Shown: piece by piece, positions 21,626 through 52,200 of the stretch | Layout: the number at the start of each line of letters is the position of its first letter | Numbering within the stretch: the first letter of the stretch is position 1 | Assembly: GCA_903813345.2 (NCBI GenBank) | Contig: CAIIXF020000004.1 | Span: forward strand, 5,477,525 to 5,541,524 | Length of the DNA stretch: 64,000 nt | Source of the DNA: Owenia fusiformis | Lineage: Eukaryota; Annelida; Polychaeta; Sabellida; Oweniidae | Direction: 5' to 3' | The notes under the pieces: model-generated | Databases searched by the model: none | What the model was told of the DNA's origin: nothing | The model's input: only the letters and a program-made list of their open reading frames with translations | Position numbers and translations under genes: made by a program

Positions 21626-21971
21626 GGTATATTATGGCGAATGAGTCTATGTATGTAATTTAATTTGATGTTTTATTTATTAACTGTACTTTTAGGTATA
21701 GAATAGATGGCGAGCTATTCTGTGTCTGCAACAGATATGCCCTTGTCTATATCCTACCCATATTTGCTTATCACCAAATCACATCCCCCGGTTATTTTAT
21801 GTATTTAATTTTGCTGTGATACAAGTATATTACAGGTATAGAGGGTGAGATATTCTATATCCAGAGTAAGATCATCAACAAATATTTATGCACTTTTTCC
21901 TACCTATACTTCCTTACCATCAAATCACATCTTTTAGTTATTTTAAAATTTTCATTTTGCTGTATTTCTAG
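21626..21971 (+). repeat. Tandem acceptor-side partial copies of the RYK WIF exon
   Basis: Two decayed copies of the exon start precede the real one. AG|GTATAGA... junctions lie at 21695 and 21835, then the functional one at 21971 (spacings 140 and 136 bp). Each copy runs from the splice acceptor into exon-like sequence ('gctattctgtgtc', 'gatattctatatcc', real 'ctattctatgtcc') and then into AT-rich intron sequence. The two upstream copies carry frame-breaking changes. A shorter, weaker acceptor-like copy is at 21626. Confidence 0.75.
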
Positions 21972-22105
21972 GTATAGATGGTGAACTATTCTATGTCCGT
22001 AACGGGATCATCAACAAATATGCACTTGGCTTTAACGTGCTCATCCCCTCACATATGCCTAGCATCAATTTCACATGGCAGAGTCTCAAACAGTCCCCAT
22101 CTGCC
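21972..22105 (+). CDS. RYK: RYK exon: start of WIF domain
   Basis: Acceptor tgtatttctag, donor GCC|GTAAG. Enters in phase with one base borrowed from the missing upstream exon. Encodes IDGELFYVRNGIINKYALGF and the following WIF strand residues. Confidence 0.88.
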
Positions 22106-25100
22106 GTAAGTAGATTTTTAGAAACTTGCTATTTAAGCTACAACCTTATGAAAAATTTCATTTTCACATAATGAAGTTATGTATTTTTGATAAACTGCTG
22201 AAATCATCATATTTAAAAGGTCACTTTCCAAGTGTCAGAAAAGATAGGGTTTAAAGGTTTAACTTTTTGAATATGATGATAATCAGCTAAATATTAATTG
22301 TTAAACACAACCTTTCTAGCTTATTATATATATTCTCAGCAAGAATCAATAAGACATCTTTGAATTAGGGTAAAAATTACCCTCTACCCTCCTACGTACC
22401 ATGCAAATGCTACCTTATTTGGACACCCCTCGTATTTACCATATCATTATTTCTGTTCTAGATGTATTACAAGATGGCCTTCAAGGTATCAAATCCTAAG
22501 GCCATGGCTCCACCAGTGCCAAGCCCACTTGATAAAGATGGGATCGTCCCAAATACACCTTCAAGTAAGTACTTAAATGAATTTAGGGGGATGGTAGAAA
22601 TCTTTTTATTAGTTTTTAAGGGGAGGCTGGTTCAATTTTGACTTATTAATTTGCTAATTATCTACCCTATCAGCACAGTGATTATGAAGTAGCAATTGTC
22701 CTATATACAGTAAAACCTGTGTATATTGAACATTTTTTTTGCCGAGAAAAATGTTCAGTGTTGTTAGAGAGGTGTTCACTAAGACAGGTTTTACTGTAGA
22801 TTTGAATAATCTAAATTAACTTTTAATATTCATGAGCAAAGAAAATTCAGAAATCTCTTGCTGCTCTTGTTCATCTCTTTTATACAATCATTTTAAGATA
22901 ATGATGAAGAACTGGACCACGTTGGTCTTCTCGAATTTCCTAGTACTCATTATCCATCACTTGATTGTAAAATACTTATGGCCATGAAATAGCAAAATAT
23001 TCATGAATTCATTTAAAGATGGCAGCACTTGTATACTACTTTGCATTTGCTAGATACTCCATATAGTCCCTAACCTGCTCCAAAAAGATGAGATGTCATT
23101 GTCCGGTACTCTACCACAAGAAATGAACATACTGTCTCAAAGTACTGACTTCCCTTATTAAGGAAATATATTTTGTTTTGATTATAACAGGGGCTTTTGC
23201 CTCTGAAATGGAGTCACACGACCCCCGAGACTGTATCAAGAACATAAGAATTTTTGTTAATTTTGAGATCTTTCTGAAGTATAGCTTTATTATATTCAAA
23301 TAAAAGGCAAATTAGAGTAGATTGCACATATTGTATCATTTTTCTGAATCGGGCCCAGAAAATTCAAAATGGTTCCCTAATGGGGATTTTGCATTAATTT
23401 TCTTATCTCTTCAAAGTAGGGCTATGTCATATTCAAATTGAAGAAATTTTAGAGTAGTTCACAATTATAGTGATGTTTTATTGGTTCATGCCTCAGAAAT
23501 TCAGAAATTCTGCTTAAAGCTGAATTTGCTTATAATTAAGAGATCTCTTCAAAGTATGGGGATGTCTGTCTTATTATCTGAAAATCAAGGCTAGGGTAGA
23601 TGGTAAATATTATATTGGATACATACCAATTCATGGATATTTTGTTCGTTGGGTTTTGCTCTATCATGGAGTTGCCATCTTCTAGTAATTTTAAAAAAGC
23701 ATGGCCACTGTTAGCCTCAAATCTATTGTACTGATTTGTGTGGAAGTAAATGGCATGCTGCATAAAATACATGTCTTAATGTCTTAATACAAAACATATG
23801 TAATTATTTCTCTATTTTCAGATTTTCACATCTCTCTGCCATGTACTGGAAAAGTTAGCGCTGTGGTTTCCGTGGAAATACAGCTAAACATCAGCATTTT
23901 TAGTGCCTCAAATCTTACTTCTCTAAACATCAAGCGACGTAAAGTTTGCGTCAAAGGTAAGTTAAGAGGGTCATGTTAAGATTTTTGAGTATTTTTTGTT
24001 TCACTTTTTGGGGGACTCCCATATAAGGAAAACATTGAAATGTGAACCTCTTAATTTAAAATGGCCACTGGTGTTTGGATAATACAGATTTTATAGTACA
24101 TTTAAATCTGACTTTATTAAGTATTTTAGAGCTGTATATCAAAAATTACAAATCTTTATCCTATACTTAGTGTACTAAATGTATAATAACATTAAAAAAT
24201 AAATTTGATATCTATTGGCAAAATGAATAACCGGAGGATATCGTGATGATATACTCCACATGTTGATTTTCCGCCAAATTGACTCTATTTGGCATGAAAT
24301 TCATTTTGCAATGATATTATATACATTTAGTACACTCCTTGTAAGTGTAGGATATATAGGCTATTTACTGGGAGGGATTGAATATGGGTTTTATTCCGAG
24401 GGACAATACAGGGTGTCCGGAAAGTAAAGATACAAATACTCTTATTTTAAGAAATTTGGGTTTTTTGAATTGAAATTGCTACAGATTGTAGAGGAACAAT
24501 ATGACAATATATCTACAAACTTTCATCACATATATATTAAATGTGTTCAAGTTATGGTTGTTATGGTTACGGATGTGAGAGGTATGTGGAGCAGTTCCAG
24601 AACAACGCTAAAAAGTGAAAAATTGCTAAAAGACAACCATTTGAAACAGTGTTTTTGTTGTATTTTCTATCTATGTTTTGTTTTGTTCATCATTGTATTA
24701 TTGCTGCTATAGTGTTTTCTTTTATATAATGATGTCATTGGCACATATCAGAACTATGCTATGTCACTAACCAGTAAAATAAAAGAAGTATTATACAAGT
24801 GCCTAGAAGAATGGTCCCTGACCATTAGTAGGAAAATCAATATTGCATCTCCACAATGCACCAATTCACAAAGCAAAAAAACAAATCTTACAATGGAGTG
24901 TCATGACATTAAAACTTTCTATACAATGCCCCATTTTCACCTGATAAAGCCTCTTTAGACTTCTACCTTAATGACCATTTGAAAGCAATATTTGTAAAAA
25001 GTTCAACATACAAATGAGACTCAGCTGGAAGCCAATGTTATCAGCAATCGGAGAGATGGACAGCAGTGGTTTTGTCAGGTCTTTGAATCGCCGGTCAAGA

Positions 25101-28100
25101 TGCACCAATAATGTATAGATAATGGGGAAAATACTGAATATTCAATGATAGTAGTAATATGAAATTATCAAATAATGTTACATTACTAATCCCTATGCTG
25201 TTGTGGTACATAATTTGATATAATATAGGAATAGATGGTGGAGTGCTAAGATTATATGAGCAGGAAAGAGATTTGTAAAGCACTATAGTGACGTTGCTCC
25301 ACATACCCTTGACTCCCGTAACCATAACAACCATAACTTTTTCATTTTGAAACTAAAAGTCATGACAGTTGCAGGATATATTCTTATAATGTCATTCTAC
25401 ATTCTGGAGCAATTTCATCTCAAAACAGGTAAATCTCTTAAAATGAGAGCATTTGTATCTTTACTTTCCGGACACCCTGTATGATATTGACCGAGGGAGC
25501 GCAGCGACCGAGTGTCAATATCATATTTCCTAAGGTCAATATCATATTTTCCAAAGAATAAAACCCATACGATTTTTTTCCCGGGGACAATACGATTTTT
25601 TCATGTAATACGATTCAATACGATTTTTATTCCTTCATATTTCCCTGGGAAAACAGTAGTATTATGGAATAAAGTAAGAACATTCTATGATTTTTTTCAG
25701 AATATCGTTTTAATCTACTCGGTGATATTGATATCAATATCACCTCGTAGATAAAAATGATATTCCTCAAAATCATAGGATATCCTATAAATATCAAACA
25801 GGGTGATCCAGAAGTTACAGATCAAAAACTATGAATTTAACTCATTTACTCTAAGACATAGCTTGTACTGTATAAATGGAAGCATACTGTTTCTCTCCCC
25901 TCCTCCACCATTAACTGTTATCCTTAATTGTTTTCAGATGGAGAATCTGTATATGATTTTGCAGCAGAAAATGCCAACCCAGTTGGTAAGTACATTTATT
26001 ATTTGACTGTTTTCCTGTGCATCACCTTAGGTCTATTTCACGAGGGGATTCAGATTGACAAAACAATGGGTCTCAAAAAACAATGGGTTTTTGAAAAACA
26101 AAATCATGGCTTCAAAGGAGTCACAGTTCAATTCGTTCCTCATTTCATTGGATGCATTTAATACCAATTACCCAGAGACTTTGTAACCATTCTGAATGTG
26201 AACCCCTTTAACCCATTTATCACACATTTTCCTACAACTATGTTGTATCTGCCTTTTCCTTAATGCAAAACTAAAGAGGAAAACATCTCTGATGATTCAA
26301 TTGGTAATTTTCTATTTCAGAAAATGTAGCAACAACATCGACTAATATTTTCTACATAGCTGTGGGTTGTGCATGTGCCCTGATATTAGTGATAGCGCTA
26401 ATTGTTGCTATTTACTATATATGCACGTCACGACGAAGACCCCCTAGAGACAGAAAAAGATATGAGGAGTATCAGCCAAGTCAATAGTAAGACCCCTTGA
26501 AATTTTAACAGTAACAATTAAAAGTATGAAGGTTAAGTAAATATTTCATAAATGGTAGATGAACTATGAGTAGATTATGATCTGATAATCCTGATTTTAG
26601 CTAGAAATCACGGGTCTACAGGGTGACCCAGAACTTCTGAGATTTTTGAGGAAGATCGAGGAAGTGAATAAATTTTCTTATTTCAAATTTGGATACACTC
26701 ACTCAGGAAAATCTGAAACAGTTTTCAATGATTTGGATCCAGTACCTCTGGGACACCTTGTATTTCTTTAAACCAAGGGATACTATGAATCTTTTTGCTC
26801 ATTGCTCATTTATTAATTTCAGTGATACTGCAAGTTCTCAAGCGCTCAGTGCCAACACACATAATCAACCTCCTCTGCATAATGGCTCTCAGCAGTACAT
26901 GTCACAGAATGGAAGCCTTGCAAGTAAGTTTAGAAAAAAAAATTTCTGTGACAATATTATTTGTTGGACATTGATTTGTGGAGTACCTAAATTATTTGAA
27001 AAATTTGTGTTTTCTTAAAGGCCCCATATGAAGTTTATTCCACTTTGGATAATATTGTAGTCAATATTTCTATGAAGATAATTGATATGTAGAACTTTTC
27101 TTTTGAAATCAATTAACAACTTTTTTGTTTTCTGAATATAATCTAGTGAAATTCCTGTTATTGGTTACAGGCAAAAATGTTTCAAGTAAAATTTGTTTAT
27201 TCCAAAAGTGATTCCCTCGAACATGATTATGACCTCATCTGAATGGATATTGCAATAGGATTATATTTTTTGGTCATGTGATACAATATTGACCAATCAG
27301 GGAATATGGTTTATGACATCGTTATAACAATGATATTAATCATCACTAGGTATCCCAGGAGGGAGACGTCCTGGTTACGCTTCATCCAACTCTGACTATA
27401 AGCCCCCTCCACAAGACCCCCGGGTGACCTTGAGTGACATCACAATCAACAGGAAATGCGTCACCCTTGGAGACTGTCTGCTTACAGGTAAGAAATATTA
27501 GAATATGTTTTTAAAGTTGTATGTTATATTTATACTATATGGTGCAATTGCAGGACAGAAAATAGATTTAATGACTCAACTGAAAATACCTCGTTTAGTA
27601 TCAGTTAGGCAAAAATCTCATTTCTAGTCATCAGGGCAGACAGGTATTTTTGGGAAGTTTCCAGAAATGTCTTGAGACTTGTCCAGATTTGTCAATTTCA
27701 ACCAAATTTTATTATATTATATGCTATATAGTAAATATGTTAATGCTGAAACCATGGATTTCTAGACACAGACCCATTTATCTTGATAATATCTTGATTT
27801 GTCGAGTCTCATCAAGAAATGGTATTTCATCTCTGAAAAATAACCAACTGTTTAAATTTGAATTTCCAGGGACATTTGGAAAAGTTTATCATGCTAAAGT
27901 AATCAGTGAAAGCGAAGAAGATGGAATAACGCAACAAGATGTCTATGTAAAAACTGTAACAGGTCAGTGAAAACTTTGAACATGCAACCTTTAACCAACT
28001 TTCAACTATTAAACCAGAATCAGGCTTGGCATAGCCTATCATAAATATTAATTTTAAAAGCCAAGTTGTATATTTCATATTTCCAGAAGAGGCAAGGTCT

Positions 28101-30720
28101 GACCAAGTGGAAGTCCTTTTCAGAGAATGTGCCACAATGAAAGGGTTCCACAACCCTAATATTAACCCTATAATGGCTATATGTATATGCATATAACAAA
28201 CGTGTATATTTCATATTTCCAGAAGAGGCAAGGTCTGACCAAGTGGAAGTCCTTCTCAGAGAATGTGCCACAATGAAAGGATTCAACAACCCAAATATTA
28301 ACCCTATAATGGCTGTATGTATATGCATATAACAAATTTGTATATTTCATATTTCCAGAAGAGGCACGGGCTGACCAAGTGGAAGTCCTTCTCAGAGAAT
28401 GTGCAACAATGAAAGGGTTCAATAACCCTAATATTAACCCTATAATGGCTGTATGTATAGATGGTTCTGAAGAAGGGATGTCTCCTCTTCTTATCTACAT
28501 GTACAGCAATGAGGGAAATATGAAACCTTTCCTGCAGAGGTGTAGGGTATCAGATATTGGCACTTCACATGTAAGTATTTAAGAAAATATTGCACCTTAC
28601 CTGTGTATCTAAACATCCCTCTGATCCGAACACTTCTCAATCAATCACATTTTCTTGGTCACAATTTTGTGAAAATCTCCCATTGGCGAACAAATTAAGG
28701 AATATGATTATGTAGTATAGTAGAACTTATGATTTTTTGGCATACATCGTAAACTTTAATGCAGCCATTTTGATATTTAGGTCAGTATTTTTTACAATAT
28801 ATTTTACAGTTTAAAAATGTTTTGTGTTTTTTCAGTTACTTAATACCCAACAGTTGGTGTTCATGTCAATACAAGTCATAAAAGGCATCCAGTATTGAAT
28901 TAAAGTACATTAATTTTAATAATAAATATTTTGTGTTTTTTTCAGTTACTTAATACCCAACAGTTGGTGTTCATGTCAATACAAGTCATTAAAGGAATCC
29001 AGTATTTACATCGGAAGCGTATCGTTCATAAAGATCTCGCCACGAGAAATTGTGTGTAAGTAAACATTGGCATAATTTAACATAATTTTGTGTCACATCT
29101 CGTCGTGATCTGTCACATATTGACATATTTTGTCATAACCTGTCATCTTGTGTTATGTCATTGCATATTTTGTCATATATTTTGCAAACATTGGCATACA
29201 TTGCAACTTATATTGGCATACATTGCAACTTATATTGGCATATTGTGTCACATAAATTTAATATACAAATATTTCTTATATTGCACATATTTTATTTTAC
29301 CGAACATCAAATGTAAAATCTTTCTTTGAATCACAGAGCTATATGTAGTACATCTGGTGTTTCATGAATCACCACATGTTTTTTCAGAGTGTCAAGTAAC
29401 CTTACAGTAAAACTCTGTGACACTGCGCTATCAAGGGATCTTTTCCCAAATGATTACCACTGTCTAGGAGACAATGAAAACAGACCTGTTAAATGGTTGG
29501 CCATTGAAGCATTGTTATATAGAAAATTCTCACCAGCAAGTGACGTGGTATGTATTTTGTTTTTCAAATGTTGCTGTCTGCAATGAGTTACATCAAAAAT
29601 CTGGCTAATTTATCACCAAAAGGGTTAGGAATTATATAATATGATTTATTATAATTCGGAAGTGATAACATATTGTTATAGTCTCCAACCTTTTTGTGGA
29701 CAGTGCTCACACTCGGAGTCTTGCATCTGTGACAATTTGCAATAACTTACAAGATGGTGACATTTTGTCATATTAATTCCTTGTTATTATTTATTGGAGA
29801 GGTATACTGGTTATTTTTATCATTAATTTAGGATTATTTACCATATAATACTAACTACTCATTTAATTCTGTTTACTTTACACCGGTTGTTTTCACAAAA
29901 TCAGCTGTTGTTTTTAGCGACTTTTCCATGTTAAATTTATGTTTTCCATTAATTTTGCTTGTAGTTTTCATTTATTTAGTCTGTTGTGAGAAATTCTTGT
30001 GAAACCCCTGTTGAAATTAAACTCTTATTTTTCAGTGGTCATTTGGTGTTGTACTTTGGGAGTTGATGACCTTAGGAATGCAGCCTTACGTTGACATCGA
30101 CCCATTTGAGATGTCAGCCTATTTACAAGAAGGATACAGAATATCACAGCCTCCAAATTGCCCTGATGAATTGTAAGTTTGGTCAAGTATTAATTTTGAT
30201 TATTGTTCAGGGGGATCCAGTAAAAATTGTGGGTTGAATATTGATCAACTTTTTTCAAAATCTTTTTTTTCAGAAAATGTTCTTTACATGAGGGTTTTAA
30301 ACTTTCTTACAGTAACTAAAGAAGGAGTCATGGATATAAGTGAATAATAGAATTGGAAATTAGGTAGAGATGTAGATGGTTGAAAACTGACCTACGATAT
30401 TTAAATTAGTTTTAGGTTGGAAGGCTACAGCTAGAAAATAAAAGATAATCCTATTTGGTAGATGCGATCGAAATCATGACCGACATTCGTCTGCTTTATT
30501 AATCTACTAAGCTTGTGTTGTGTTACAAGTATTATCGCAAAATTCCCAGACTTGTTTTTCTCATATTTCCAGCTGGTGTTTGTTTACATGCACTATTTAT
30601 CATTTCAGGTTTGCTGTCATGGCATGCTGTTGGGCACTTGCACCAGAGGAGCGACCAAAATTCTCACAACTTCTCATATGCTTACAAGACTTTTACACAG
30701 CTCTTGGACGCTTTATCTAG
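21972..30720 (+). CDS. RYK: RYK, Wnt-binding receptor pseudokinase (13 exons, first coding exon missing)
   Basis: Single-pass receptor that binds Wnt through an extracellular WIF domain and has a catalytically altered kinase domain. Exons: 21972-22105, 22462-22564, 23822-23956, 25938-25985, 26321-26486, 26823-26923, 27350-27487, 27870-27962, 28359-28570, 28946-29055, 29388-29547, 30036-30172 and 30609-30720. All junctions keep one continuous frame of ~549 codons. Exons 1-3 encode the WIF domain, ending in a tetrabasic KRRK site as in vertebrate RYK. Exon 5 gives the transmembrane helix. Exons 8-13 encode the kinase: GTFGKV loop, VYVKTV with the β3 lysine, HKDLATRN catalytic loop, and D-T-A where active kinases have DFG (vertebrate RYK has DNA). 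RDLFPNDYHCLGDNENRP and YVDIDPFEM are RYK-specific. The hydrophobic ending ALGRFI resembles the PDZ-binding tail of RYK. The signal-peptide exon (~45-60 residues) is not found. Several exons have duplicated acceptor-side copies. Confidence 0.93.
22462..22564 (+). CDS. RYK: RYK exon: WIF domain
   Basis: Acceptor ttctgttctag, donor TCAA|GTAAGT. Encodes MYYKMAFKVSNPKAMAPPVP and a proline-rich loop. Confidence 0.88.
22706..22799. mobile_element. TACAGTAAAACCTGT-end MITE in RYK intron
   Basis: Left end TACAGTAAAACCTGT, right end ACAGGTTTTACTGTA: a 15-bp inverted repeat, with 'gttca' and 'tgttcac' internal blocks. The TA at each end fits a Tc1/mariner/pogo-type target. Related copies: 47103, 57281, possibly 16838. 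Confidence 0.75.
23822..23956 (+). CDS. RYK: RYK exon: end of WIF domain and tetrabasic site
   Basis: Acceptor tctattttcag, donor AAAG|GTAAGT. Encodes the FHISLPCTGKVS segment, N-glycosylation sites NIS and NLT, and KRRKVC. Confidence 0.9.
24409..25479. mobile_element. 1.07-kb mariner-like element with ~200-bp inverted ends, decayed
   Basis: Both ends begin CAGGGTGTCCGGAAAGTAAA and stay similar for about 200 bp (including 'tatggttgttatggttac' on each side in opposite orientation). It is flanked by TA. The middle holds what looks like the eroded 3' part of a mariner-type transposase: around 24940-25000 one frame reads LDFYLNDHLKAIF, recalling the LDFFLWGYLK block of mariner/IS630 transposases, then a frameshifted NRRSRCTNN tail near 25085-25110. 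It is inserted inside another repeat whose halves ('ttttattccgagggacaata' and 'tgatattgaccgagg...') resemble 62210-62300. Not functional. Confidence 0.75.
25799..25830. repeat. CAGGGTGATCCAGAA repeat end
   Basis: Isolated 'cagggtgatccagaagttac', matching the left end of the element at 26617. It is probably a remnant of the same family. Confidence 0.4.
25938..25985 (+). CDS. RYK: RYK micro-exon, extracellular stalk
   Basis: 48-bp exon; acceptor ttgttttcag, donor GTTG|GTAAGT. Encodes DGESVYDFAAENANPV, which replaces the short linker of vertebrate RYK between the WIF domain and the membrane. Confidence 0.8.
26321..26486 (+). CDS. RYK: RYK exon: transmembrane helix
   Basis: Acceptor tctatttcag, donor CAATA|GTAAGA. 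Encodes a juxtamembrane TSTNIFYIAVG segment, a hydrophobic helix of about 24 residues, and a basic stop-transfer stretch (SRRRPPRDRKR). Confidence 0.9.
26617..26762. mobile_element. Small MITE with CAGGGTGACCCAGAA-type ends
   Basis: Left 'cagggtgacccagaact', right 'ctctgggacaccttgta': imperfect inverted ends, TA-flanked, no coding content. It sits just upstream of the RYK juxtamembrane exon. Confidence 0.5.
26823..26923 (+). CDS. RYK: RYK exon: cytoplasmic juxtamembrane Ser/Gln-rich region
   Basis: Acceptor attaatttcag, donor GCAA|GTAAGT. Low-complexity Ser/Asn/Gln-rich, as in the corresponding part of vertebrate RYK. Confidence 0.82.
27350..27487 (+). CDS. RYK: RYK exon: juxtamembrane to kinase start
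   Basis: Acceptor catcactag, donor ACAG|GTAAGA. Encodes DITINRKCVTLGDCLLTG, the strand leading into the glycine-rich loop. Confidence 0.85.
27870..27962 (+). CDS. RYK: RYK exon: glycine loop and β3 lysine
   Basis: Acceptor gaatttccag, donor ACAG|GTCAGT. Encodes GTFGKVYHAKV and VYVKTVTG. Confidence 0.9.
28076..28358 (+). repeat. Two 136-bp partial copies of the following RYK exon
   Basis: Acceptor AG positions at 28086, 28222 and (functional) 28358 are exactly 136 bp apart. Each upstream copy holds the intron polypyrimidine tract, the acceptor and the first ~100 bp of exon (through 'ataatggct'), then 'atatgtatatgcatataac' with an in-frame stop and no convincing donor. They are nearly identical to the real exon, so the duplication is recent or homogenised. 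Confidence 0.9.
28359..28570 (+). CDS. RYK: RYK exon: αC helix to β5
   Basis: Acceptor catatttccag, donor CAT|GTAAGT. Encodes DQVEVLLRECATMKGF, the strand NINPIMAVCIDG and YMYSNEGNMKPFLQRC. The third of three near-identical exon starts, and the only one that continues to a donor. Confidence 0.9.
28828..28897 (+). repeat. Partial 110-bp upstream copy of the catalytic-loop exon
   Basis: The acceptor-plus-exon start 'tttttcagttacttaatacc' occurs here with AG at 28835 and again with AG at 28945, 110 bp apart. This copy covers the first ~62 bp of exon then diverges ('attgaattaaag'). Confidence 0.88.
28946..29055 (+). CDS. RYK: RYK exon: αE and catalytic loop
   Basis: Acceptor gtttttttcag, donor TGTGT|GTAAGT. 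Encodes LLNTQQLVFMSIQVIKGIQY and IVHKDLATRNC. Confidence 0.92.
29070..29260 (+). repeat. Short tandem intronic repeat (ttggcatacattgcaactta-type)
   Basis: Runs of 'tgtcatat' and 'attggcatacattgcaactt' units directly downstream of the catalytic-loop exon donor. The exon itself is not included in the unit. Confidence 0.6.
29388..29547 (+). CDS. RYK: RYK exon: D-T-A motif and activation segment
   Basis: Acceptor gttttttcag, donor GTG|GTATGT. Encodes KLCDTALSRDLFPNDYHC, with DTA in place of DFG, and VKWLAIEALLYRKFSPASDV. Confidence 0.92.
30036..30172 (+). CDS. RYK: RYK exon: αF-αG
   Basis: Acceptor ttatttttcag, donor GAATT|GTAAGT. Encodes WSFGVVLWELMTLGMQPYVD and the DPFEM segment. Confidence 0.92.
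30609..30720 (+). CDS. RYK: RYK terminal coding exon
   Basis: Acceptor tcatttcag. Encodes FAVMACCWALAPEERPKF and ends ALGRFI then TAG. Two other frames across this exon are also open but are shadows. Confidence 0.92.
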
Positions 30721-34065: not shown

Positions 34066-35160
34066 TCAACATGCTAAAAATTCTAAGCGTCTAAAGGCCA
34101 AAGGTGTGCGTCTTGGTATGCCCATACATGGACTAGCGGGGACATGTACACGTCGTGCCTGGTCCAGTTCAGCTTGTTCCAGTGTCTGCTTCATCACTTT
34201 GCTCTTCGTGTAATGTCTCGCTAACTTTTTCTGTTTATTCTCGATATAAACAGACGCTCGATTTTGAAGCAATGTATTCGCTATGTCATTATGTTTGTCC
34301 CGTAGGGCCAACATTAAAGCAGTCATACCTCCATTGTCTTGCATGTCAACGTTTGCGCCACGTGCCATGAGAAATTCAGCGATTGGTTTTAATCCGCGCC
34401 AACAGGCTAACATTAGCGCTGTATGTAGACTTTTTGTTTGGAGATTAACATTAGCGCCTTTACGCACTAATAATTTCACTATGTCAAGATGCCCTTCTTG
34501 TGCGGCTAATATTAGCGCTGTGTAGTTCTGTTGTTTTTCTTGTATGTCTAGTAACGCCCCCTGGTGGAATAATATTTTCATAATAATGATATGGTCTGAG
34601 CGTTCGTATCGATGGCGCACTGCTAACATCAAAGGCGACCACCCTTCACCTTGTACTGTGTTAACAGTTGCGCCATATAGTAACAACATTTCCGTCATTT
34701 TTATATGCGCCAATTGGACTGAATGATGAAATGAGGAGTATCCATTATAGTCCTGCTTGTTAACATCCGCGTTGTAATCCAGCAGAACGCGCGCTGAATT
34801 CAATGTATCTTTGATCACTGCATACATCAATGGCGTCAATCCGTGGGAATCCGGTAAATCGACAGGTACCCCGCAGTGAATAATCGTATTCAGAAAATTT
34901 AATTGGTTCATCATAGCTGCTAGATGTAACACAGAGATTTCTCCATCTTTTCCCCAGGATAAATCGCACGGGAGTAATAATGAACAAATTGGCTTTATAT
35001 GCTCTCGATTTGCCGCCATAATCAACTGAACACTTTGGAAATCGCATTCTGCGATCGCGTCTGCTAAATCAAGTGCTATCTCTTCAATTTCTTCATCAGT
35101 TAATTCCTTCGTAGTATCAGTGTTTTTAGTCCCTGTTTCAATATAGGATGATTCAGCCAT
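34066..35160 (-). CDS. Intronless ankyrin-repeat protein, seven repeats
   Basis: A 364-aa frame with an acidic N-terminus (residues 10-45, TKELTDEEIEEIALDL) and then seven ankyrin repeats of about 33 residues: ~75-104, 105-137, 138-170, 171-209 (longer, with a 5-residue insertion), 210-242, 243-276 and 277-309. Each has the helix motif [TS]PLMLA/TALMLA and a loop GANVN or variant. The C-terminus (310-364) is basic then Cys-ended, with no SAM, SOCS or death domain. Ankyrin repeats bind partner proteins; the partner cannot be told. It lies tail-to-tail with RYK, lacks introns (retrocopy or naturally intronless), and has more CpG than its flanks. The ATG gives a plausible MAESSYIETG start. Similar seven-repeat proteins are common in invertebrates and I cannot name an orthologue. 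Confidence 0.85.
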   Translation of the reverse strand: MAESSYIETGTKNTDTTKELTDEEIEEIALDLADAIAECDFQSVQLIMAANREHIKPICSLLLPCDLSWGKDGEISVLHLAAMMNQLNFLNTIIHCGVPVDLPDSHGLTPLMYAVIKDTLNSARVLLDYNADVNKQDYNGYSSFHHSVQLAHIKMTEMLLLYGATVNTVQGEGWSPLMLAVRHRYERSDHIIIMKILFHQGALLDIQEKQQNYTALILAAQEGHLDIVKLLVRKGANVNLQTKSLHTALMLACWRGLKPIAEFLMARGANVDMQDNGGMTALMLALRDKHNDIANTLLQNRASVYIENKQKKLARHYTKSKVMKQTLEQAELDQARRVHVPASPCMGIPRRTPLAFRRLEFLAC

Positions 35161-36439
35161 GTTGCATTAATGGTCCTTTTTGTGTTTTGAAGAACAGTGT
35201 TTCGGCCCTCTGTATATGACCTTATATGGTATGCTCCTTGAATTCACTGAAAATAGAACCATCATGTTACCTTAGTGATGCTTATGTCTTAAGATATATT
35301 TTTTAATAAAATGCGGATATCCCAAATAACAGATGTTTATTTATGCTTTTGTTGTAACAAGTGAACTAAAATAGGCTAATTATGACATCATAGTTCTTGT
35401 AAAGTATTAAATTATTTCAATAATGGGATACCCAAAGTTAGAAAAATATTGATAATATCACAGTGTGATAACTCATTCTTAAGTAATTGAATATCATTAC
35501 GATGACATCACACAAATAGTATTGTTTAAATCACTATAACTACTATTTTGACTTAATCATACCTGTATGTTTCTTTATGATTAATAAAGATGAATTAAAT
35601 TGTAATATTCACCATTAATTCCATATAACCGTTAAAAAGATATGGTATTCCAAAAAAGAAATACCTAGAGATCCAAAACTTTGAAAAAACTATATAGAAA
35701 AATATTGATAAATCAATTACAGTATGTACACATGAACCTAGCAATGCATTGCCTATTGTAAAAATGTCACTAAAAATGTCCAGTTTCATGAGTTTTAATC
35801 ACATTTACATTGAATCAAACTGTCTTATACTCAAACTTCTAGATATTCAAAAAGCAATGAACTTACCTTCAGCGATGAGTGTTTATTTTGCCTATTGTTT
35901 ATTCATTTGATTTATTGTGGTTACTAAGATAATGAGAATCTTAGAACATGTCAACCTTGAGATATCTTACTTTATCTTGATACGTTGATATTTTAACTGT
36001 CCTAAGATTGTGACTATTTCCTAGTTACGACCTGTATACAAGCAGGTTGGTCTAATTCACTTATTCCAGAAATTAAACTTAAAGTAATTTGGATTAACCA
36101 TAAAATCCTTGTAAAAGCTTCAACCTCAATGGTTTTGTATCCTTAACAAGAGGAATGTCATATCCCATGATTCTTTGTTCTTGATTTGGGAGTGGTTTGA
36201 TATAATTGGTTTAAAGGGGTCATGTGATTGGTGTGATGCATGCTGGGATTTTGCTTTGTTCGTTCTGGTTCTATTGAGAATATCAAAGACTATTGGATTT
36301 ATAGGTTCTGGTTGAATTTTAAAAGTTGAGTTTATTTGATTTGGATTTTACATATGTGAGTTGAATGGTATAGTGGAATGATCCAATAATAACTGAATCA
36401 CACAATCCCCAACGATAATATGTGATCGTGGTCCTAATT

Positions 36440-36562
36440 TTAAAGGGAAAATTTAGTGAAAAAGAGTGGAATCAGCAAGGAATAAAGTAAACATGTATGT
36501 AGTCAACACTCTAAAATTCAAGAAAATCAGGCAGTTCATTCAAATTTTAGAGAGAAAGAAAG
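36440..36562 (-). repeat. ~150-bp hairpin repeat family, reverse copy
   Basis: Best reverse copy: 'gagtggaatcagcaaggaat', 'gtatgtagtcaacactctaa', 'ttcaagaaaatcaggcagtt' and 'cattcaaattttagagagaa' in order. Confidence 0.82.
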
Positions 36563-38163
36563 GGGAATAAATATGATCAAAATAAATTTTATTCCTAGTC
36601 ACAAATAAATAATTTCATTACACCGGGTTACAAACTCTGCATCCATCTATTGTTACAGAAATATGATAATGTTGATTATTTCTAAATGTAGACCAAAAGC
36701 CGACATAGTTTTGATTTTCCAGGGTATTCTCCCTGGGGGTGAGACCCTGGGGTTGAGACCCTGGGAGTCAGTCAGGGGGGGGGGTAATAATTGATTAAAT
36801 TGATCTACTTTATTGTTTACCATGAAATCGATTAATCTCTTACCCTGACAAAATGTAACGACCTGGTTGTATTTACAAGTGTAACAACTGTTACAGAAGT
36901 TACAGATGTTGGGTGCTGATGCCTAATGCTGGTTACTTAACACTAAAGTTGCCAAATCATATTGCTTCACATTTTCTATGTTCTAGCATCAAAGGGAGTG
37001 TTTCGTTTGCCAACAATATTTGAGATCAATATTTCATAGTAGCACGGACAAATATGAGGCAAAATGGTGAATTACGTATTTGCGTCACTCATACTATGAA
37101 TGCCTATAATGTCTACAAATTAAAAAATGTTCCTTATATATTATTTTTGTATGTCAGAATTTCACTCTAGTTTTCTAATGTGTAATCAGATTTTGATAAT
37201 ACTGAAATTTAAAAAAGTTATTAAAGAAAAAGTGACCATTGAATAGTTCTGTCCGGGCTACTATGTATTCCAAACAAGCATTTGAGAATGTTCAAATTGT
37301 GAGCACCCTAGAATACAAATGTACAGACCTAGGGTCAAACATCTTTATTTGAAAATGCATGTCTCCCAATATTTGCCAAATATAGTCTCGGTTCCTATGT
37401 CTCCCACTCAGAAGTTCTCGAGGGCCATGGTTTAAAATCCACAATAATTAAAAGAAAAAGCAAGAAATCTTATGAAATGGAGTTAATATATCCTCGTATA
37501 TAAAATCAATACTCAATACAATACATGTACTTAAATACAAGAAATACAATGATTTCAGTCATTTCATCTTAACTTAAAGAGAAATGAGTGAAATAAACAC
37601 CACCAAAAAACACTTTAAGCATGGGTTAACGAGAGCCGTGAGATGGTTATAGAATGTCAATTTTCCTTTGAGTCTTGAATTATTATTGATCCTAGTATGT
37701 TTATTGATTTGCATTGAGAATTCTTTGAGTTTAACCTGTGCTGAAATATAATTCTACAAATGTCATTGGTTTTGTATTGCAGATTTGTATGTTTTAGTTT
37801 TGAGTCTGTGTCAGCCTATTGAAAAATCTGAATTGGAGTTATCAAAATGTAAATAGAAGATACAAGATCTTATATCTTATAACATAAGATATTGGTGATA
37901 GTGTTGCCATTTTATATTTTATATAAGCTCATGAATTTACTTGATTTCTCTATTTAATACAATATTAACTTCATTTAGTAATTTTATTTACCCCTTATCA
38001 AACGTCATTTGTCAAAGGTCATTTTCAATTTTTGATATCTTTACAAAGGCAAAATAAAAAAAACATCACATACCTGATTAAGACAAATGCACATTCCAAC
38101 ATCCAATATCTGTTAAAAACATTTTCAATGTAATTCTTGTTCCTTTAAAATTGTGAAAATGAA

Positions 38164-42897: not shown

Positions 42898-42993
42898 TCA
42901 ACCAAAGCCAGTACCGATCAAAATCAACACTGAAATCAAAACCGAAAAAATAAAACAAGCAATTCCTCGTGGTAATGGCATTGTTCGGGGTGG
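42898..42993 (+). CDS. Possible exon on the plus strand, opposite the ATP6AP2 3' end
   Basis: A short frame reading VQPKPVPIKINTEIK, then basic and glycine-rich residues ending IVRGGG. It lies between an AG (tatacaaag) and a strong donor, GGAG|GTGAGT. The composition looks coding rather than intergenic. No partner exons were found and the acceptor is poor in pyrimidines, so this may be chance. Confidence 0.2.
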
Positions 42994-43033
42994 AGGTGAG
43001 TAATCGCAATATAACTGTTCTACGCGTCAACTG

Positions 43034-43219
43034 CTATTCTTTCTTCATCCTTTGGCTGGTCATTCTATAGATGATGCTGTCCCTACCAGGATCCATCCCC
43101 CAAATACCATAAGAGATGGCGAACAGGGAGATGATCAAGATGATCCCGAGCCATAATATGATGTTAAAGATGACTGCATAGTTTGGGTCTACATCATCGG
43201 TAAGGTTGATTTTAGGCAA
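43034..43219 (-). CDS. ATP6AP2: ATP6AP2 exon 8: transmembrane helix and cytoplasmic tail
   Basis: Acceptor tatactttcag. Starts LPKINLTDDVDPNYAVIFNI, contains the helix, and ends with the conserved MDPGRDSIIYRMTSQ tail and stop. Confidence 0.95.
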   Translation of the reverse strand: MPKINLTDDVDPNYAVIFNIILWLGIILIISLFAISYGIWGMDPGRDSIIYRMTSQRMKKE

Positions 43220-46200
43220 CTGAAAGTATAAAGTATTTGTGTAAAGTTGAAGTACAGTATACTGTGCTCCCAGTTATGTTCGACAATACTATATTTCATG
43301 TTTTTGTGATTTTGATATTTGGCGGCTGTTGATTGTCACTCGTTTTGAAACTGTGAGTTCAGTAACCCTTCGTCAGAGTTAAGTACATAAGCTTTGAAAT
43401 AAGTGAAATGAGTCTTGGTGCTGATAAGACGGACAATGACCCCAAAAGTTAGATGTCATGACTTTAAGGAAGAATTTCATTCTATGTTGTTTTAGAAAAC
43501 ACATCAGTCACCTTTTTGTTCTCAGAAATGGAACATCTATCCGAACCTCATTCAACAAGTTAGCTTGTTTATTCATACAATATATGACATTCATTGTACC
43601 ATCTGACTTAGGGTGTTTATTATAATAAAATTATTTTCATTCTATTTATGTTCTGATGGGTTTTTATAGCATTTTTGATTCGACATAAAACAACAACTTC
43701 CTCATGATTACACTCTACTATACCTAAACCCTAGAAATGCATAAGATACTCTGTTTGTCTAATTGTATTGTTTAGTATATTTTTGCAAGTACCTTATTAA
43801 CATCTAACAGTCTTCCGATAAACCATTCATAAGGAACAGACAAATAAAAACAAATAAGATAATTATTACTAATAAGCCAAATGGGTTGCTCATGAACACC
43901 AAATGCAAGGTATAGTAGAGTGGAATGGCTAATATAGTTTCCATCACTGATCCCGTGAATGTCAATAATACACTGTATGTGAGACAAAACCCATTTTGCT
44001 CCTGTAAGAAAATCACATGCTGGTCATGTTTTGGAATGCAAAATGGAATGAATTAGCCAAGAATTGAGTTACCAGGCATGTAGTTAACACTCTAAATTGT
44101 ATAGAAATGCAAGAAAATCAGGTAGTTCCTTCACATTTTTACAGAAAAAGCATGATATAGACATGATCAACCCAAATATTCTCAAATCAATAATTGCTAA
44201 ATGTTCATTTATTATTATGAACAGATGCTTTCTCTCTTGTCTATGTACCACCTTTGTTTGACATGAAATGCATGAATGATTATTAACCACATTGCTTTAT
44301 TACTTTGTTTTCAAATTAGTGGCTGTTGAATTAAAATGTTATTGCGGATTGTTTTTCTGCTATGACACGCAGCCAATACAATTTGGTGCTGCAACTGCAT
44401 TAAATTAGTATCAAAATACTGTCAAATCCATGATTTTATTTTGGGGGTGTTAAAGCAAGCGAGAAACTACACAATCTTAAAAGCAAAAATTTATAATTCA
44501 GAGATCAACATTCTATACATATTTTGAATTCGGAGCGGCGAAACTAACAAATATGTGGCCCTTAATATTCTGATGCTTTTTGCCATTCAGGTACCTGGTA
44601 AAATTGTTTCATCTCTGCTTCATGCAAATTGAAAAGAAAATGTCCATAAAATTGTCTCGCCTAACACTCCAAGTTAAAATGGTTTCAAATCTAGCTTTTT
44701 CTTCGTAACATATGTAGTAGCAATTTAGAATGAAAATGTCCATAAACTTGTTCAGTTTGGTGTAACATTCCAAGTTAAAAAGGTTTCAAATCCAGCTTTT
44801 CTTCGTAACATATGTAGTATAAGCAAATTAGAGCGAAAATGTCCATAAAATTGTTCAGTCTAACATTCCAAGTTAAAAAGGTTTCAAATCCAGCTTTTCT
44901 TCGTAACATATGTAGTAGCAAATTAGAATGAAAATGTCCATAAACTTGTTCAGTTTGGTGTAACATTCCAAGTTAAAAAGGTTTCAAATCCAGCTTTTCT
45001 TCGTAACATATGTCGTATAAGCAAATTTGAGCGAAAATGTCCATAAAATTGTTCAGTCTAACATTCCAAGTTAAAAAGCAAATTAGAGCGAAAATGTTCA
45101 TAAAATTGTTCAGTCTAACATTCCAAGTTAAAAATGTTTTAAATCTAGGTTTTCTTCGTAACATATGTAGTATAAGCAAATTAGAAAGAAAATGTCCATT
45201 AAATTGTTCAATCTCACATACCAAGTAAAAATGGTTTCAATTCCAGCTTTTCTTCGTAACATAGCATAACATAACTATGTAGCATTCCTTTAAATATTAT
45301 AGATATAAATTATTTTGATTGGTTAAATCTGGGTGTCATTCAATTCTTCAAAAATTAACTTTGTGATGAGCTCTGATTGGTCTAATCCAGTTTCTAATGT
45401 TACATATTCATAAGTTTCTATTTCAGTTGATTTATTTTCTATAATAGCAGTTTGATTCCTTTTCATATTTCCAAATTCCAATGCTGCAAATATTTGATCT
45501 TGTAGGCGTAATCTTACAGTTATCTCGCGCATCCAGTCATCTTGATATTTTATACCAAATAGAATTAAAATAAAGATAAGGTATAAAAATAAATACTGAA
45601 AAAATCTATCACGTATAAACATCCTATGTGTTATAACAGTATTCAGTTTTTAGAAATGTAATGAAGTTGAAAATTGATGCTCTGACTTCAGGTCATTAAT
45701 CAACTTTAATTATCAACATTTAATGGACCTTACTCAAACTTTAATGTCAAACATTTTCAAAACAATTTTAAAGTAAAAAGTTATTGTTTGTAGGCATGGA
45801 TGTTTTAAAGGTGTCATCCAGAGCAGGTTTTCAACTTCCTGCAATTGTTATTTAAACAACTCCCTCGAAACATTATTTTAATTTCAACATATGACCCCTT
45901 AAAACATTCTGCGTAATTATAAAACTAACGTCACACATTGACTTTGAATAGCGCTGAACATTATCTTACAATTAATTGAGAATCCCAATGGATATATGAA
46001 TAGCCATTATGTTTAGAGGTCTCATCAAACTTAGTCATACATTTTCTTTTAGACCAACAATTTCAGAGTATTAGTTATTGTGACATCACAAGAGAATTTT
46101 TGAAATTTTTGTACCGGATTTTCTCGCATATACGCCCCCCTAATTTTAGGCCCATGGGCCAAAAATCGAATGTAGTACGCTTATACGCCCATGGGCCTAT

Positions 46201-49200
46201 AAAAAATGACTATTTATTGATTTTTTCAATAAATTCAAGAGTATTTTGTCACTGGCAGATCGTTACTTTGTTTCAACATTAAGTTCAACGCTGTGCTGTA
46301 AGTGGCAGTGTTGGATTGTTCTGTTGTTACTTTGTTTCAACATTAAGTCCAAGGTTGTAGGTGACATTTCCTTTATAATTCTTACAAAACATGCGGTAGG
46401 ACTACAACAGTAGGTACGGTAGTCTTTGAGGAAGATGGCACCTACCAGTACTAAACCATTGTATTCATCAGCTCTTCTCACCTTTACGCCCACTGGGCCA
46501 AAAATCAAAAGTAGTACACTTATACGCCCATGGGCGAAAAATAAGAGGTAAAATAACAGACGAAATTAACCCTTCTTTCAGTTATACGCCCAGGGCTTAT
46601 ATGTGAGAAAATCCGGTACATGTCAAGTTTTTTTTATTGAACTTCATTCCGACTCACCAAGGAGGATTGGCCCCCAGAGTGCAACATCGATATTCTGTCC
46701 CATATATGGGCATGTTGTGATACAAAATTTGAAAACAGCCACCATTTTATTCACTTCAACATTTGAATCGTGAATTTTGGTCTTATTTCCCAGCGACAAA
46801 TTCCAAAACGCACAAGAAATGATCGAGATATTGGTTCGAATCTTTTTTATCTTCAAATTTTATATTGATCCTAAAAGTTAATTCGCATTAAAATAATTTA
46901 TAAATATAACTGGAAACTGAAGATAAATATTAAATTTTTAGTAATACAAACATTCATAGTGTGTCACTGATGTTAGGACAGGTGCTACAATAACTACAAA
47001 TTAGTGATAAAATCGAATCAATACACATATGTACTTCATCAAAAATAGCTTTCATAGAAAATGAACTATCTGTGCTAAGTTGCTATTGGCAAATATCTCA
47101 GCTACAGTAAAACCTGTAAATCCAAGCACCTTAGAACATCTCTCAATGTAAATGACATTTTGTCTATCCCAATTTTGTACTCTCCAATTGAGTCGCATGT
47201 TAGGAGATGCTGGAATGTGAATACCTTATCTGAACACTTTTGGTTAGCCTCAGTGGTATTCATACTAGACGGGTTTTACTGTATATTGCACTGGCGGATC
47301 CAGGGGGCTCTGGGTCCCCCCTTGGGGGGCCCAGAAAAAAAATTTTGGGCCCAAAGATTTTGTAGGGCCTCAACTAGTGGGCCTTTTTGGGCATTACTTG
47401 GGTTTTTTGGGCCTTTTTAGGCCAAATTGTCAAAAATGGGTCTCAAATCTGGATTTTTTAAAATTTGCCCCCCCCCCGCCCTCTTATTAGCTTCTGGATC
47501 CACCAATGTATTGTATATGTCAGTTTACATCTGAGGCTACTTGTAAACAATGATACTTTTACTTACTTCAGAGGCTGCTTGTAGAATATCTCTAGACTTC
47601 CTCACTAGGGTCCGGGCTGGTACACCACCACTCAAAGTAACGATCTCAACGAGGACATTTTTGTTGTATAATATCTTGAACTCTTCGGTCATCTAAAATG
47701 TACCACAATATATTACAATATATAAGGAATGAGGTAATCAATAAAGACTAAAACTGATCCATCCTGTGAATATCATGTCAAAATCCTGGCCAATGGTTAT
47801 TTACTAGTAAATTGACTTCAATAGTTGAATAGATATCGTATCACAGCCTACTCAGTGTCTGATTTAGTTAAGAGTGGGGCATAGTGAACAAAGTATTTTT
47901 GTTGGAGACACACATAAAAATATTTAAGCTTATAATTTTAGATTTTAAACTCGATGAAGTTTGAAACAGACAAGGGGTATTAGCCTGGAAATGTTTCTTA
48001 GAGTTTATTTATGCTTATATTGATGTAAGAATAACATTAAACACTTCTGACCAACTCCATATAATTAAAATTTCCTACATCAATTGCTCTCTTACTTTGA
48101 CTCATATCCATGGTAACAACCGATTCAGGCTACAAGGCAAATTGTTACCTTTTCTAGAAATCCTTGGATGAGTTTCAATGCATCCTTCACTTGTGTGGAC
48201 TCAGCCCCATATTCCTGGACAAGAGCCTGAAATCCTTCAATGTTAAAGTTGAACACATCAGGAGTATTGTCCTTCACACTTGATTCACCCTTTACCTAAA
48301 ACACAGAAAACATACATTTATTTTTCAATGGAATTTTCCACTGTGACATATATTTTCAATGGAAATTTCCACTGATCATTTTATTGACCATGGAGTTTTC
48401 CACTGATAGATATTCACTTTACAACATTTAGCTTATGTCCAACAGAATTGTTCAGCATTTTCCACTTGAAGGTATTGAATGGAAATTTCTAAAAATATCA
48501 CCCACCTTTTCTTCTATTTTACCGTCAATACCACCCACCTTTTCTACCATTTTCCCACCAATATCACCCAGCTTTTCTACTATTTTACCACCAATATCAC
48601 CCACCTTTTCTACCATTTTCCCACCAATATCACACACTTTTTTTATGATTTTTCCACCAATATCACCCACCTTTTCTACTATTTGTCTGATAACCTCTAG
48701 CTCTCCTAAAAGCAACATGTCCGCTCTGTTGGAAGTATTCAAAGTTCCAATATTCTCCTTCAATGCCACTGAACTAGGGTCAATAAGAGCATCTTCCAAA
48801 GATGAAAATGTTGCGGGAATGTCCTTGAAGAGCATTGGATGCTGGGATTGGATGTCGAGCATCTATAAAAAATGTACACATACATATAATAGTTTTATAC
48901 AAAAAAAATTATTCCATTTCTAAAGTATTAAATTTTTTTTAGATTTAAAATTTTAACACAAGTTTAAGCTACAGAACATCATGATCGACTCGACTCTGCC
49001 TTGTTTACTGTTTAGTATCTTAGCGGGACCCTCAAGTTTACAATAAAAAAGAGGTCTCTCAAAGTCAACTTACTGTATTATCTGTCCTCGAGTCAACAAT
49101 AAGAGGGGGACTCAAAGTCAACTTACTGTATTTTCTACCCTTAGGTCTACAATAAGAGGGGACCTCTCAAAGAATACTTACTGTATTATCTGCCCTCAAG

Positions 49201-52200
49201 TCGACAATAAGAGGGGACCTCTCAAAGAATACTTACTGTATTATCTGCCCTCAAGTCTACAATAAGAGGGGACCTCTCAAAGAATACTTACTGTATTATC
49301 TGCCATCAAGTCTACAATAAGAGGGGACCTCTCAAAGAATACTTACTGTATTATCTGCCCTCAAGTCGACAATAAGAGGGGACCTCTCAAAGAATACTTA
49401 CAGTATTATCTGCCCTCAAGTCTACAATAAGAGGGGACCTCTCAAAAAATGTGTTCTGTATATTGTCCACCAAACTTTCAGAACTCACAGCCATGTCATC
49501 CTGAAAAATAAATTTTAATATAGCATTTCATTTCAAATCTCTGCTCAATATTATCAATGAACTTTAAAAGTTCAATATTTGTACTAAAATAGAGCTTATT
49601 TATGTTTAACATATTGCTCACGTTTATATTAAAAATAATGTGTACAAAACTAGGAGTTATATTATCCAGCTGTTTTAGCTTGTAAGAGTTTCATCATAGA
49701 GCATATATCATACAAGTGATATATTTAATTAATAAATAGAAATTCATTGATTTTTTTAAACTTGAAGTTTGATGCTATAATGTACACAGTATATTGGTAC
49801 CCAGGCTTTACATCTAAAAATATGGGCAGAATATACTGTAAACCATGGTTAACATAGGTTTAGTTCAGCATGCAATTTATTCACATCCTTTTTTAATTAA
49901 CTTCATGTTGAATCAAAATTTACTTTTTCAAAATTTTATCTTTTCCAACACCTGATTTGTGTTATATACCAGATCTTTCAATAAGTTCACGGAAAAATGC
50001 TCTCATTTCAAAGGTTTTTAATATTTTTTCATGAAATTTTAACATAACATCCAAACTTATTGAACGACCTGGTATCATTAACATCTAAACATAACATAGC
50101 AAAATTCAAATGTTTTACAGTATTTAAAATTCATCTTATTTTGTATGAATCTCATTGTGTTTTCAACAGGATTTTTTATCACGTGGGTGCACAATTCTCA
50201 TTTTCACAATTCAGACCGAAATTGGTCAAAATATGGCCATTTTTTATGATTTTTCTCATTTTCATGTGGGCGTTCAACTGCAAATCGATTTTCAGATGGA
50301 TGCGAGCCTGTTTTTTTAAATCTCAGGTGGGACAGGTGTTACACCAACATGTTTTAATGCTGGGGTGTTACACCCACTTGTTTTAATGCTGGTGTGTTAC
50401 GCCCACTTGTTTTAATGCTGGGGTGTTACGCCCACTTGTTTTAATGCTGGGGTATTACGCCCACTTGTTTTAATACTGGGGTGTTACGCCCACTTGTTTT
50501 AATGCTGGAGAGATCACTGTCATACTCACTTTCTTAACTGGGAATTTAACATGGTGTTTGATATTCAGCTGTGTGTTATCATTGAAGCCGGGGATTGTAA
50601 ACATCACATTGGCCTTAGGACGATGGAATGGGTTGCCTTCTTTCAATCCTGTCCATTCTATGCTCTGGAAAATCAGATTCATGAATATAAATACTATAAT
50701 TTATACAGGAAATCAAATGTTGAACATCAAATCAACCTTAGGATGGATCATCCAATCCAATTATTTCAAGGTGACATTTAATATTTATAAAAAAAATAAT
50801 GTTCATAAATTAAATATTACATTAAGGTTATAAATTATTGACTTGTTCTATCAGACACATTGTATTCATTAATCCTGTATGCCCATTATAACAAAAATAA
50901 TATATAACCTTGAAATAAAAAATCAATAGTGCACTGCCTTGAAGTACAATAACATGTAGCTGGTGAAACAAAATGATCTCCCGATCCTTTTTTAGAAAGC
51001 TTACTCAAACTCTCATTTTTAAAACAATTGGCCTTATTTGAAAAAAAAATGAGCCTCAATTTTGAAAAATAGGCCCACATTTTACAATCAAGTCCCAAAC
51101 TTCGTCCAAACTCTTGTATTAAAAAATATTTTTAGAACACCCTGTCAGTTTTTCAAATCTGCCCAAGAAGATGGTAACCCCTGCCTAAAAAACTATAATA
51201 CACTCTTCCTTTTCTAAAGGTGTCCACCAAAAGAGATTTTACTGCATAAAGCATTAGTGTCGAAGGCCATCAACATGGGCTTAACCAAACATGAGGCAGC
51301 AAGGCAATTGCCTCATCAACATTTTGCACAATTTTTCAGACATATTTCACTAAAATTGCTGTGAATTTGAATTCGAAAGGTAGTAGACAAGACATGTACA
51401 TTCTTTAGGTTAAATTTGTCTTGCCTATTTCAATGTCACCGGTCCCTAGTCCCCACCTCACCCCATGTATAGTCTGTCGAGTGACTTTATCATAGGGTAA
51501 CACAGGGTGCACCTGGTCCTCAGACTCCTCACCAACAAAAATTCATCCATTTTGTTACAAACACAGTGAATTTGCCTCACCTAGATCCTGGCTTCACCTC
51601 TGATCTGAACATACCTGTGTTGGTAGACCCAGTGCAGTAGAGACAATTTCAGGCAATTCTGATGCACCAATGGCTCCTGCATTCTTCATGAATGACACAT
51701 AGCTAGGTGTATGGGCCACAAACACCTCCTGTGATCCAAATACAACTGAAAATGAAGATACATTTATATAGTATGCTTCCCCGTAGCCAGCTTTTACCAG
51801 GAGGGGGAGCTTTTTTCAGGGTGGGGAGCTTTTTCACAATTTTGGCTAAAAATCATGCAAAAAATTCTCAGAATGGTGAAAACTGCATGATTTTGAAAGA
51901 ATTTCTGGACGGGGGGGGGGGGGGGGGGTCCAAGCACCTCCTGTGATCCGAAAACAACACAAAATAAATGTGTCAGACACATTTATAATGCTTCTTGGAA
52001 AATAGGTTTGAAGCAATATCTGAAAGGCAAAATTTTATGTTTGAAAAAGTGCAAAATAAGTGTGCAAGCACAATTAAAAATTTTCTCTGAAGTTTTTCGA
52101 TAAAAATTTGCAGTTGATACACCATAGGCATTATAATTGATCAAAATTTCATTTACATATTACAATACAATAGCAAATAGTTTAAAGCATCACATGTCTT

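What the first reader, a model, noticed from the sequence alone, without database searches (positions are those of the whole stretch)
21626..49500. Tandem duplication of exon edges with their splice sites, recurring in two unrelated genes
In RYK three exons have duplicated acceptor-side copies (periods 140/136, 136 and 110 bp). In ATP6AP2 two exons have duplicated donor-side arrays (55 and 33 bp). Five events at exon-intron borders out of about 21 exons is far more than chance placement of minisatellites would suggest, as introns make up most of the sequence. From memory, minisatellites spanning splice donors ('mirages') were reported in amphioxus genes; if that recollection is right, this may be a related phenomenon, here on both donor and acceptor sides. 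A mechanism such as recombination, repair or replication slippage at transcribed exon edges is worth considering.
Basis: partly seen in the sequence, partly recalled or inferred. Interest (0 to 1): 0.75.

Follow-up and report, generated by a model that had tools for sequence, protein, structure and literature searches.

The report
Tandem copies of exon edges
Two ordinary animal genes carry several small tandem copies of exon edges, splice sites included, like the "mirages" described in amphioxus; the extra copies are presumably spliced away, and whether exon edges are truly hotspots for such duplications is still open.

Summary
RYK (+ strand) has acceptor-side partial copies of three exons; ATP6AP2 (- strand) has donor-side arrays of two exons (55 and 33 bp). 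I add a sixth, older event: an acceptor-side copy of ATP6AP2 exon A1. Models using only the splice site joined to the intact exon give a RYK kinase-like part and an ATP6AP2 that align almost end to end with solved relatives, so the extra copies are probably removed as intron. Extra sites in RYK B, k2, k3 and ATP6AP2 A3 lead into stop codons (11 of 11); only the 33-bp array is in frame and open. These match amphioxus "mirages", reported on both boundary sides, so the kind is known. In the two genes 6 of 10 local duplications include one of 36 known junctions (1.49 expected, nominal P 8e-4). Host unknown; no genome held. Best reading: neutral tandem duplications tolerated at exon edges; an exon-edge hotspot is not excluded.

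The parts
21684..21732 (+). RYK exon B extra copy 1: acceptor (AG ends at 21695) plus start of exon; reads into a stop after 3 codons
   Evidence: (E 0.081)
21752..21885 (+). RYK exon B extra copy 2: intron end plus first ~50 nt of exon; acceptor below the listing threshold, no donor seen
21972..22105 (+). RYK exon B (WIF domain), functional
   Evidence: Pfam WIF E 3.5e-13; junctions
28067..28338 (+). RYK k2: two extra 136-bp units, each with an acceptor identical to the functional one
28359..28570 (+). RYK exon k2 (kinase-like domain), functional; its first ~100 nt belong to the third unit
28815..28896 (+). RYK k3: extra copy of acceptor plus about 60 nt of exon, followed by 27 nt without match to the exon
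28946..29055 (+). RYK exon k3 (HKDLATRN motif), functional
49402..49500 (-). ATP6AP2 exon A3, functional
49029..49461 (-). 55-bp array: last 45 nt of exon A3 plus GTAAGTATTC; six extra donors scoring as the real one
48671..48862 (-). ATP6AP2 exon A4 (RENR_N), functional
48494..48684 (-). 33-bp array of exon A4 end plus intron start; in frame, no stop, 4 of 5 extra donors intact (one of the four weaker)
51615..51745 (-). ATP6AP2 exon A1 (RENR_N start), functional
51931..51994 (-).
50335..50508 (-). 29-bp intronic array starting 22 nt after the A2 donor; no junction inside
48314..48414 (-). 31-bp intronic repeats ending 18 nt before the A5 acceptor; no junction inside

Best explanation
Mirage-type tandem duplication. 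A DNA segment that happens to include an exon-intron border is duplicated in tandem, and some copies then multiply like a minisatellite. Only the splice site still joined to the intact exon gives a normal mRNA: the last acceptor on the acceptor side, the first donor on the donor side. The extra copies therefore become part of the intron, have no function and drift. Shown here: the anatomy, the open frame and homology of the exon-adjacent products, stop codons behind the extra sites of RYK B, k2, k3 and ATP6AP2 A3, and loss of splice signals in some old copies. Inferred: that splicing really ignores the extra sites; that the first duplications arose by break repair or slippage; that retention is neutral.
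For: Composite proteins that by construction leave out the extra copies align with solved relatives: the RYK kinase-like part with RYK chain 6tua over 274 of 274 residues (E 5e-105), ATP6AP2 with renin receptor chains over residues 7-336 of 338 (E 3e-52). At the array-bearing joints k1/k2 and k2/k3 there is no gap, at A3/A4 none, at A4/A5 one residue. The B and A1 acceptor joints are not tested by these, because the exon before each was not found. Use of any of the 11 extra sites of B, k2, k3 and A3 brings a stop (11 of 11). Old copies decay: B copy 2 has 7 non-synonymous and 3 synonymous differences from the exon and its acceptor is not listed at 4 bits; the A1 copy has lost its AG. Spacings of 140, 136, 110, 55 and about 212 bp are not multiples of three; 33 is. 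Purely intronic duplications also exist (23252-23566, 44624-45263, 46262-46358, 50335-50508). Amphioxus precedents on both sides, with RT-PCR suggesting undisturbed splicing, in PMC3087553 (passages) and PMC3902484 (passages).
Against: No RNA data, so splicing is inferred. Neutral retention alone does not predict an excess over intronic duplications, yet 6 of 10 events include a junction (1.49 expected, P 8e-4) and 4 of 7 among copies at least 84% identical (0.82 expected, P 3.5e-3), an age range in which simulated detection bias is small. Differences between functional exons and their youngest neighbours lean synonymous (k2 copy 2: 5 syn, 1 non; k3: 2 syn, 0 non), more than free drift of the extra copy predicts, though numbers are tiny. 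All six extra A3 donors keep the full score.
Confidence: 0.72

Rival explanations
1. Exon edges are a genuine mutational hotspot for small tandem duplication in this lineage (for example breaks or slippage tied to transcription, R-loops or splicing), followed by the same neutral retention.
For: 6 of 10 events in the two genes include a junction against 1.49 expected (P 8e-4); 6 of 12 with two TRF-only arrays added against 1.57 (P 1.4e-3); 4 of 7 young ones against 0.82 (P 3.5e-3); whole window 6 of 16 against 0.59, though that set includes unannotated sequence and one dispersed-repeat pair. Arrays spanning or within 25 nt of a junction: 8 of 12 against 2.65 (P 1e-3).
Against: The window was selected for the pattern. 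RYK alone: 3 of 5, P 0.07; ATP6AP2 alone: 3 of 7, P 0.008. At the oldest age simulated border copies are detected 51/60 against 16/60 (120-bp units) and 9/60 against 3/60 (60-bp units) for intronic ones. With odds raised three-fold P is 0.057.
Confidence: 0.22
2. The copies are functional: alternative splice sites or decoys that tune RYK and ATP6AP2; in particular the in-frame 33-bp array would add 11-residue units to ATP6AP2, a length-variable coding repeat selected by alternative donors.
For: Array open in frame over five extra units with 4 of 5 extra donors intact; six extra A3 donors and two extra k2 acceptors score as the real ones.
Against: One open 33-bp unit makes the whole array open, so openness is weak evidence. 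In A4 units 10 of 12 differences from the exon are non-synonymous (units not independent). Extra sites of B, k2, k3 and A3 bring stops. None of the copies is a full exon. The renin receptor chain aligned has no such insert.
Confidence: 0.07
3. Assembly artefact: allelic versions of the same exon edge were placed in tandem.
For: Young pairs differ by a few per cent and mainly at synonymous sites (k2 copy 2, k3), as alleles would. PMC3087553 reports one mirage aberrantly assembled in the amphioxus draft (passage).
Against: Old copies are 72-76% identical, the two donor-side arrays have at least six units of fixed period, k3 copies are separated by 27 nt absent from the exon, and some splice signals are mutated. 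Six separate short events are hard to explain this way.
Confidence: 0.06

Closest known systems
Mirages of amphioxus (Adh3, globins BflGb6 and BflGb9, TnC, PGBD5)
   Different: Here six events in two neighbouring unrelated genes; host not identified; G+C 0.34 against about 0.41 recalled for Branchiostoma, so the host may not be amphioxus; no haplotype or RT-PCR data.
Intron gain by tandem genomic duplication (Rogers model)
   Same: Local tandem duplication involving splice signals (PMC3443670, passages).
   Different: There an exonic AGGT is duplicated and a new intron lies between two copies. Here none of the 43 local pairs links the donor and the acceptor of one intron; existing borders are copied.
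Direct repeats in new Daphnia introns, attributed to staggered breaks
   Same: Local direct repeats at or near intron ends, break repair proposed (PMC4202315, passages).
   Different: The repeats shared with an adjacent exon are 4-12 bp at new introns; here 33 to over 100 bp at introns not shown to be new.
Internal tandem repeats modifying human genes in segmental duplications
   Same: Minisatellite expansion alters gene structure (PMC2812944, outline only).
   Different: Not centred on splice borders as far as the outline shows.

Membership tests
Mirage (amphioxus exon-intron border minisatellite) | Tandem repeats that include an exon-intron border | tested here: met
   6 of 36 known junctions have a second local copy (junctions)
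Mirage (amphioxus exon-intron border minisatellite) | Either 5' or 3' boundary affected | tested here: met
   4 acceptor-side and 2 donor-side events
Mirage (amphioxus exon-intron border minisatellite) | Many, not all, copies keep AG/GT signals | tested here: met
   k2 (2), k3 (1), A3 (6), A4 (4 of 5) and B copy 1 keep them; B copy 2 weak, A1 copy lost
Mirage (amphioxus exon-intron border minisatellite) | Normal splicing not disturbed | not testable with these tools
   Only indirect: exon-adjacent products match RYK and renin receptor; B and A1 joints not covered
Mirage (amphioxus exon-intron border minisatellite) | Copy number varies between haplotypes or somatically | not testable with these tools
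   One sequence only; no genome held
Mirage (amphioxus exon-intron border minisatellite) | Found in cephalochordates | tested here: inconclusive
   G+C about 0.34; two repeat patterns without match in viral contigs, one without match in genome contigs; these collections are not animal collections
Rogers-type intron gain | Copies at both ends of the same intron | tested here: not met
   None of the 43 pairs (offset up to 1000) links a donor to the next acceptor; the introns bearing k2, k3, A3 and A4 copies are all shorter than 1000; the introns before B and A1 could not be fully checked
Mutually exclusive exon duplication | Full-length exon copies with both splice sites and open frame | tested here: not met
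   Copies are partial; reading through the 11 extra sites of B, k2, k3 and A3 meets stops

The most novel reading that the evidence does not exclude
Exon edges in this animal are true hotspots for tandem duplication, so that splice-border copying is a genome-wide mutational process, perhaps beyond amphioxus, that supplies spare splice sites, in-frame exon extensions (as in ATP6AP2 A4) and raw material for new introns.
Probability: 0.2. Interest if true: 0.75.

Novelty: new member of a known kind. Interest (0 to 1): 0.42.

Why it matters
If border copying is a general mutational process rather than neutral debris seen by selective looking, it would give a simple source of alternative splice sites and of new introns, a long-debated question. 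Even as neutral debris, six events of different age in two genes are a good test bed for how splicing copes with identical competing sites (three identical acceptors at RYK k2; seven equally scored donors at ATP6AP2 A3).

Tried and rejected
Whole-genome search: no genome held for the window. Identifying the host: two repeat patterns in viral contigs and one in genome contigs gave 0 matches; Rfam at gathering threshold 0 matches; tRNA scan 0. Other genes in the window as a second test set: 20 further open frames gave no family at or above Pfam's cut-off (one sub-threshold hit), so no further junctions could be added. Filler between k3 copies has no template nearby (longest shared 8 nt; 196 of 300 random places do as well); the 13-nt match of the k2 filler is only its own sister copy. 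Functional alternative exon for RYK B rejected: copy 2 has no donor seen and 7 of 10 differences are non-synonymous. The duplicate at 1381-1584 is part of a dispersed repeat family with copies at about 2.5, 6.5, 8.1, 9.5, 18.3, 36.5 and 44.1 kb, so it is not a clean tandem event, though it stayed in the whole-window count. Rows dropped from the event list: one search pairs with E above 1e-3 (such as 2953/3099 and 52969/53203) and copies more than 250 bases apart (such as 46145/46483 and 6611/7321). Event borders and unit lengths used were set by me. The A1 copy was first seen by eye and then found by the self-comparison; the ungapped scan did not list it.

Full report
What is there. The window is animal-like DNA of about 34% G+C with no tRNA found and no Rfam match at gathering threshold, and no genome is held for it. 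RYK lies on the + strand and ATP6AP2 on the - strand. Pfam finds WIF and PK_Tyr_Ser-Thr in RYK exons, and RENR_N and Renin_r in ATP6AP2 exons. I placed 19 exons and 36 junctions. The N-terminal exons of both genes and part of the RYK transmembrane region were not found, and acceptors H, A4 and A6 score poorly.

The duplications. RYK: exon B has two partial acceptor-side copies (21684-21732, 21752-21885), k2 two (28067-28338), k3 one (28815-28896). A possible fourth RYK B copy at 21626 is inconclusive. Two further arrays lie 22 and 18 nt from a junction without including it.

Which copy is used. Proteins made with the last acceptor or first donor, which leave out the extra copies by construction, align with RYK chain 6tua (kinase-like part, 274 of 274 residues, E 5e-105; human by recall) and with renin receptor chains (residues 7-336 of 338, E 3e-52). 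The joints k1/k2, k2/k3 and A3/A4 show no gap and A4/A5 a gap of one residue. The B and A1 acceptor joints are not covered, because the preceding exons were not found. Extra sites at B (2), k2 (2), k3 (1) and A3 (6) all lead into stops, 11 of 11 read. Only A4 is in frame and open, adding up to five 11-residue units. None of the copies is a full exon. Splicing itself is inferred; no RNA was available.

More than chance? A self-comparison of the window (pairs within 250 bases, E up to 1e-3) gives 10 local duplications in the two genes; 6 include a known junction, 1.49 expected, nominal P 8e-4. With two TRF-only arrays added it is 6 of 12, 1.57 expected, P 1.4e-3. For copies at least 84% identical it is 4 of 7, 0.82 expected, P 3.5e-3. 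RYK alone gives 3 of 5 (P 0.07), ATP6AP2 alone 3 of 7 (P 0.008). Simulated detection at equal age is about equal for young copies and favours border copies for the oldest, 51/60 against 16/60 for 120-bp units and 9/60 against 3/60 for 60-bp units at 20% change per copy. Raising the odds of border events two- or three-fold gives P 0.015 or 0.057. Since the window was picked for this pattern, I treat the excess as suggestive.

Mode of evolution. Old copy B2 differs from the exon by 7 non-synonymous and 3 synonymous changes, as a free copy would. Young k2 copy 2 (5 synonymous, 1 not) and k3 (2, 0) lean synonymous, while k2 copy 1 is mixed (3 synonymous, 4 not). The lean could come from constraint on the functional copy, unequal exchange between alleles, or misassembly; the numbers are too small to decide. 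The k2 and k3 units hold 15 and 27 nt not found in the exon edge, which would fit repair with filler, but no template for the k3 filler was found. Small tandem duplications at DNA breaks are a described mutation class (start of the abstract of PMC8355091 in the search listing).

Comparison with what is known. Passages of PMC3087553 describe mirages in amphioxus Adh3 (units 10-72 bp) and globins (150-160 bp), at both boundaries, with splicing apparently undisturbed, length differences between haplotypes and a model for intron gain. Passages of PMC3902484 add PGBD5 (60 and 108 bp) and mention TnC. The structures here match these in anatomy. Two features, undisturbed splicing and length instability, could not be tested, and the host is unknown; G+C of 34% is lower than the roughly 41% I recall for Branchiostoma. 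In the listings of searches, which cover open-licence papers only, I saw no genome-wide test of border enrichment.

Verdict. Observation confirmed and slightly extended; the kind is known; the claim of strong enrichment is only partly supported.

Noticed in passing
13876-15723 (+): 616-codon open frame with a weak Mab-21 nucleotidyltransferase match (E 0.0012, below Pfam's cut-off) and hydrophobic stretches in its last third; perhaps a cGAS-like receptor relative (inference).
   Followed up: no
34069-35166 (-): 366-codon open frame of ankyrin repeats (Ank_2 E 1e-60).
   Followed up: no
1370-1620, 2495-2680, 6500-6690, 8075-8275, 9450-9615, 18260-18455, 36420-36585, 44020-44180: Dispersed AT-rich repeat of about 160 bp in at least eight places on both strands, MITE-like.
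   Followed up: partly
46144-46205 and 46483-46544: Pair of palindrome-bearing repeats with CCCATGGGC cores.
   Followed up: partly
44624-45263: Deep intronic array in ATP6AP2 with mixed 98/57/198-bp periods, no known junction inside.
   Followed up: partly
43709-43922 and 62588-62800: Inverted dispersed repeat of 214 bp, 90% identical.
   Followed up: no
10996-12099 (-): 368-codon open frame, lysine- and glutamate-rich, no Pfam match up to E 0.1.
   Followed up: no
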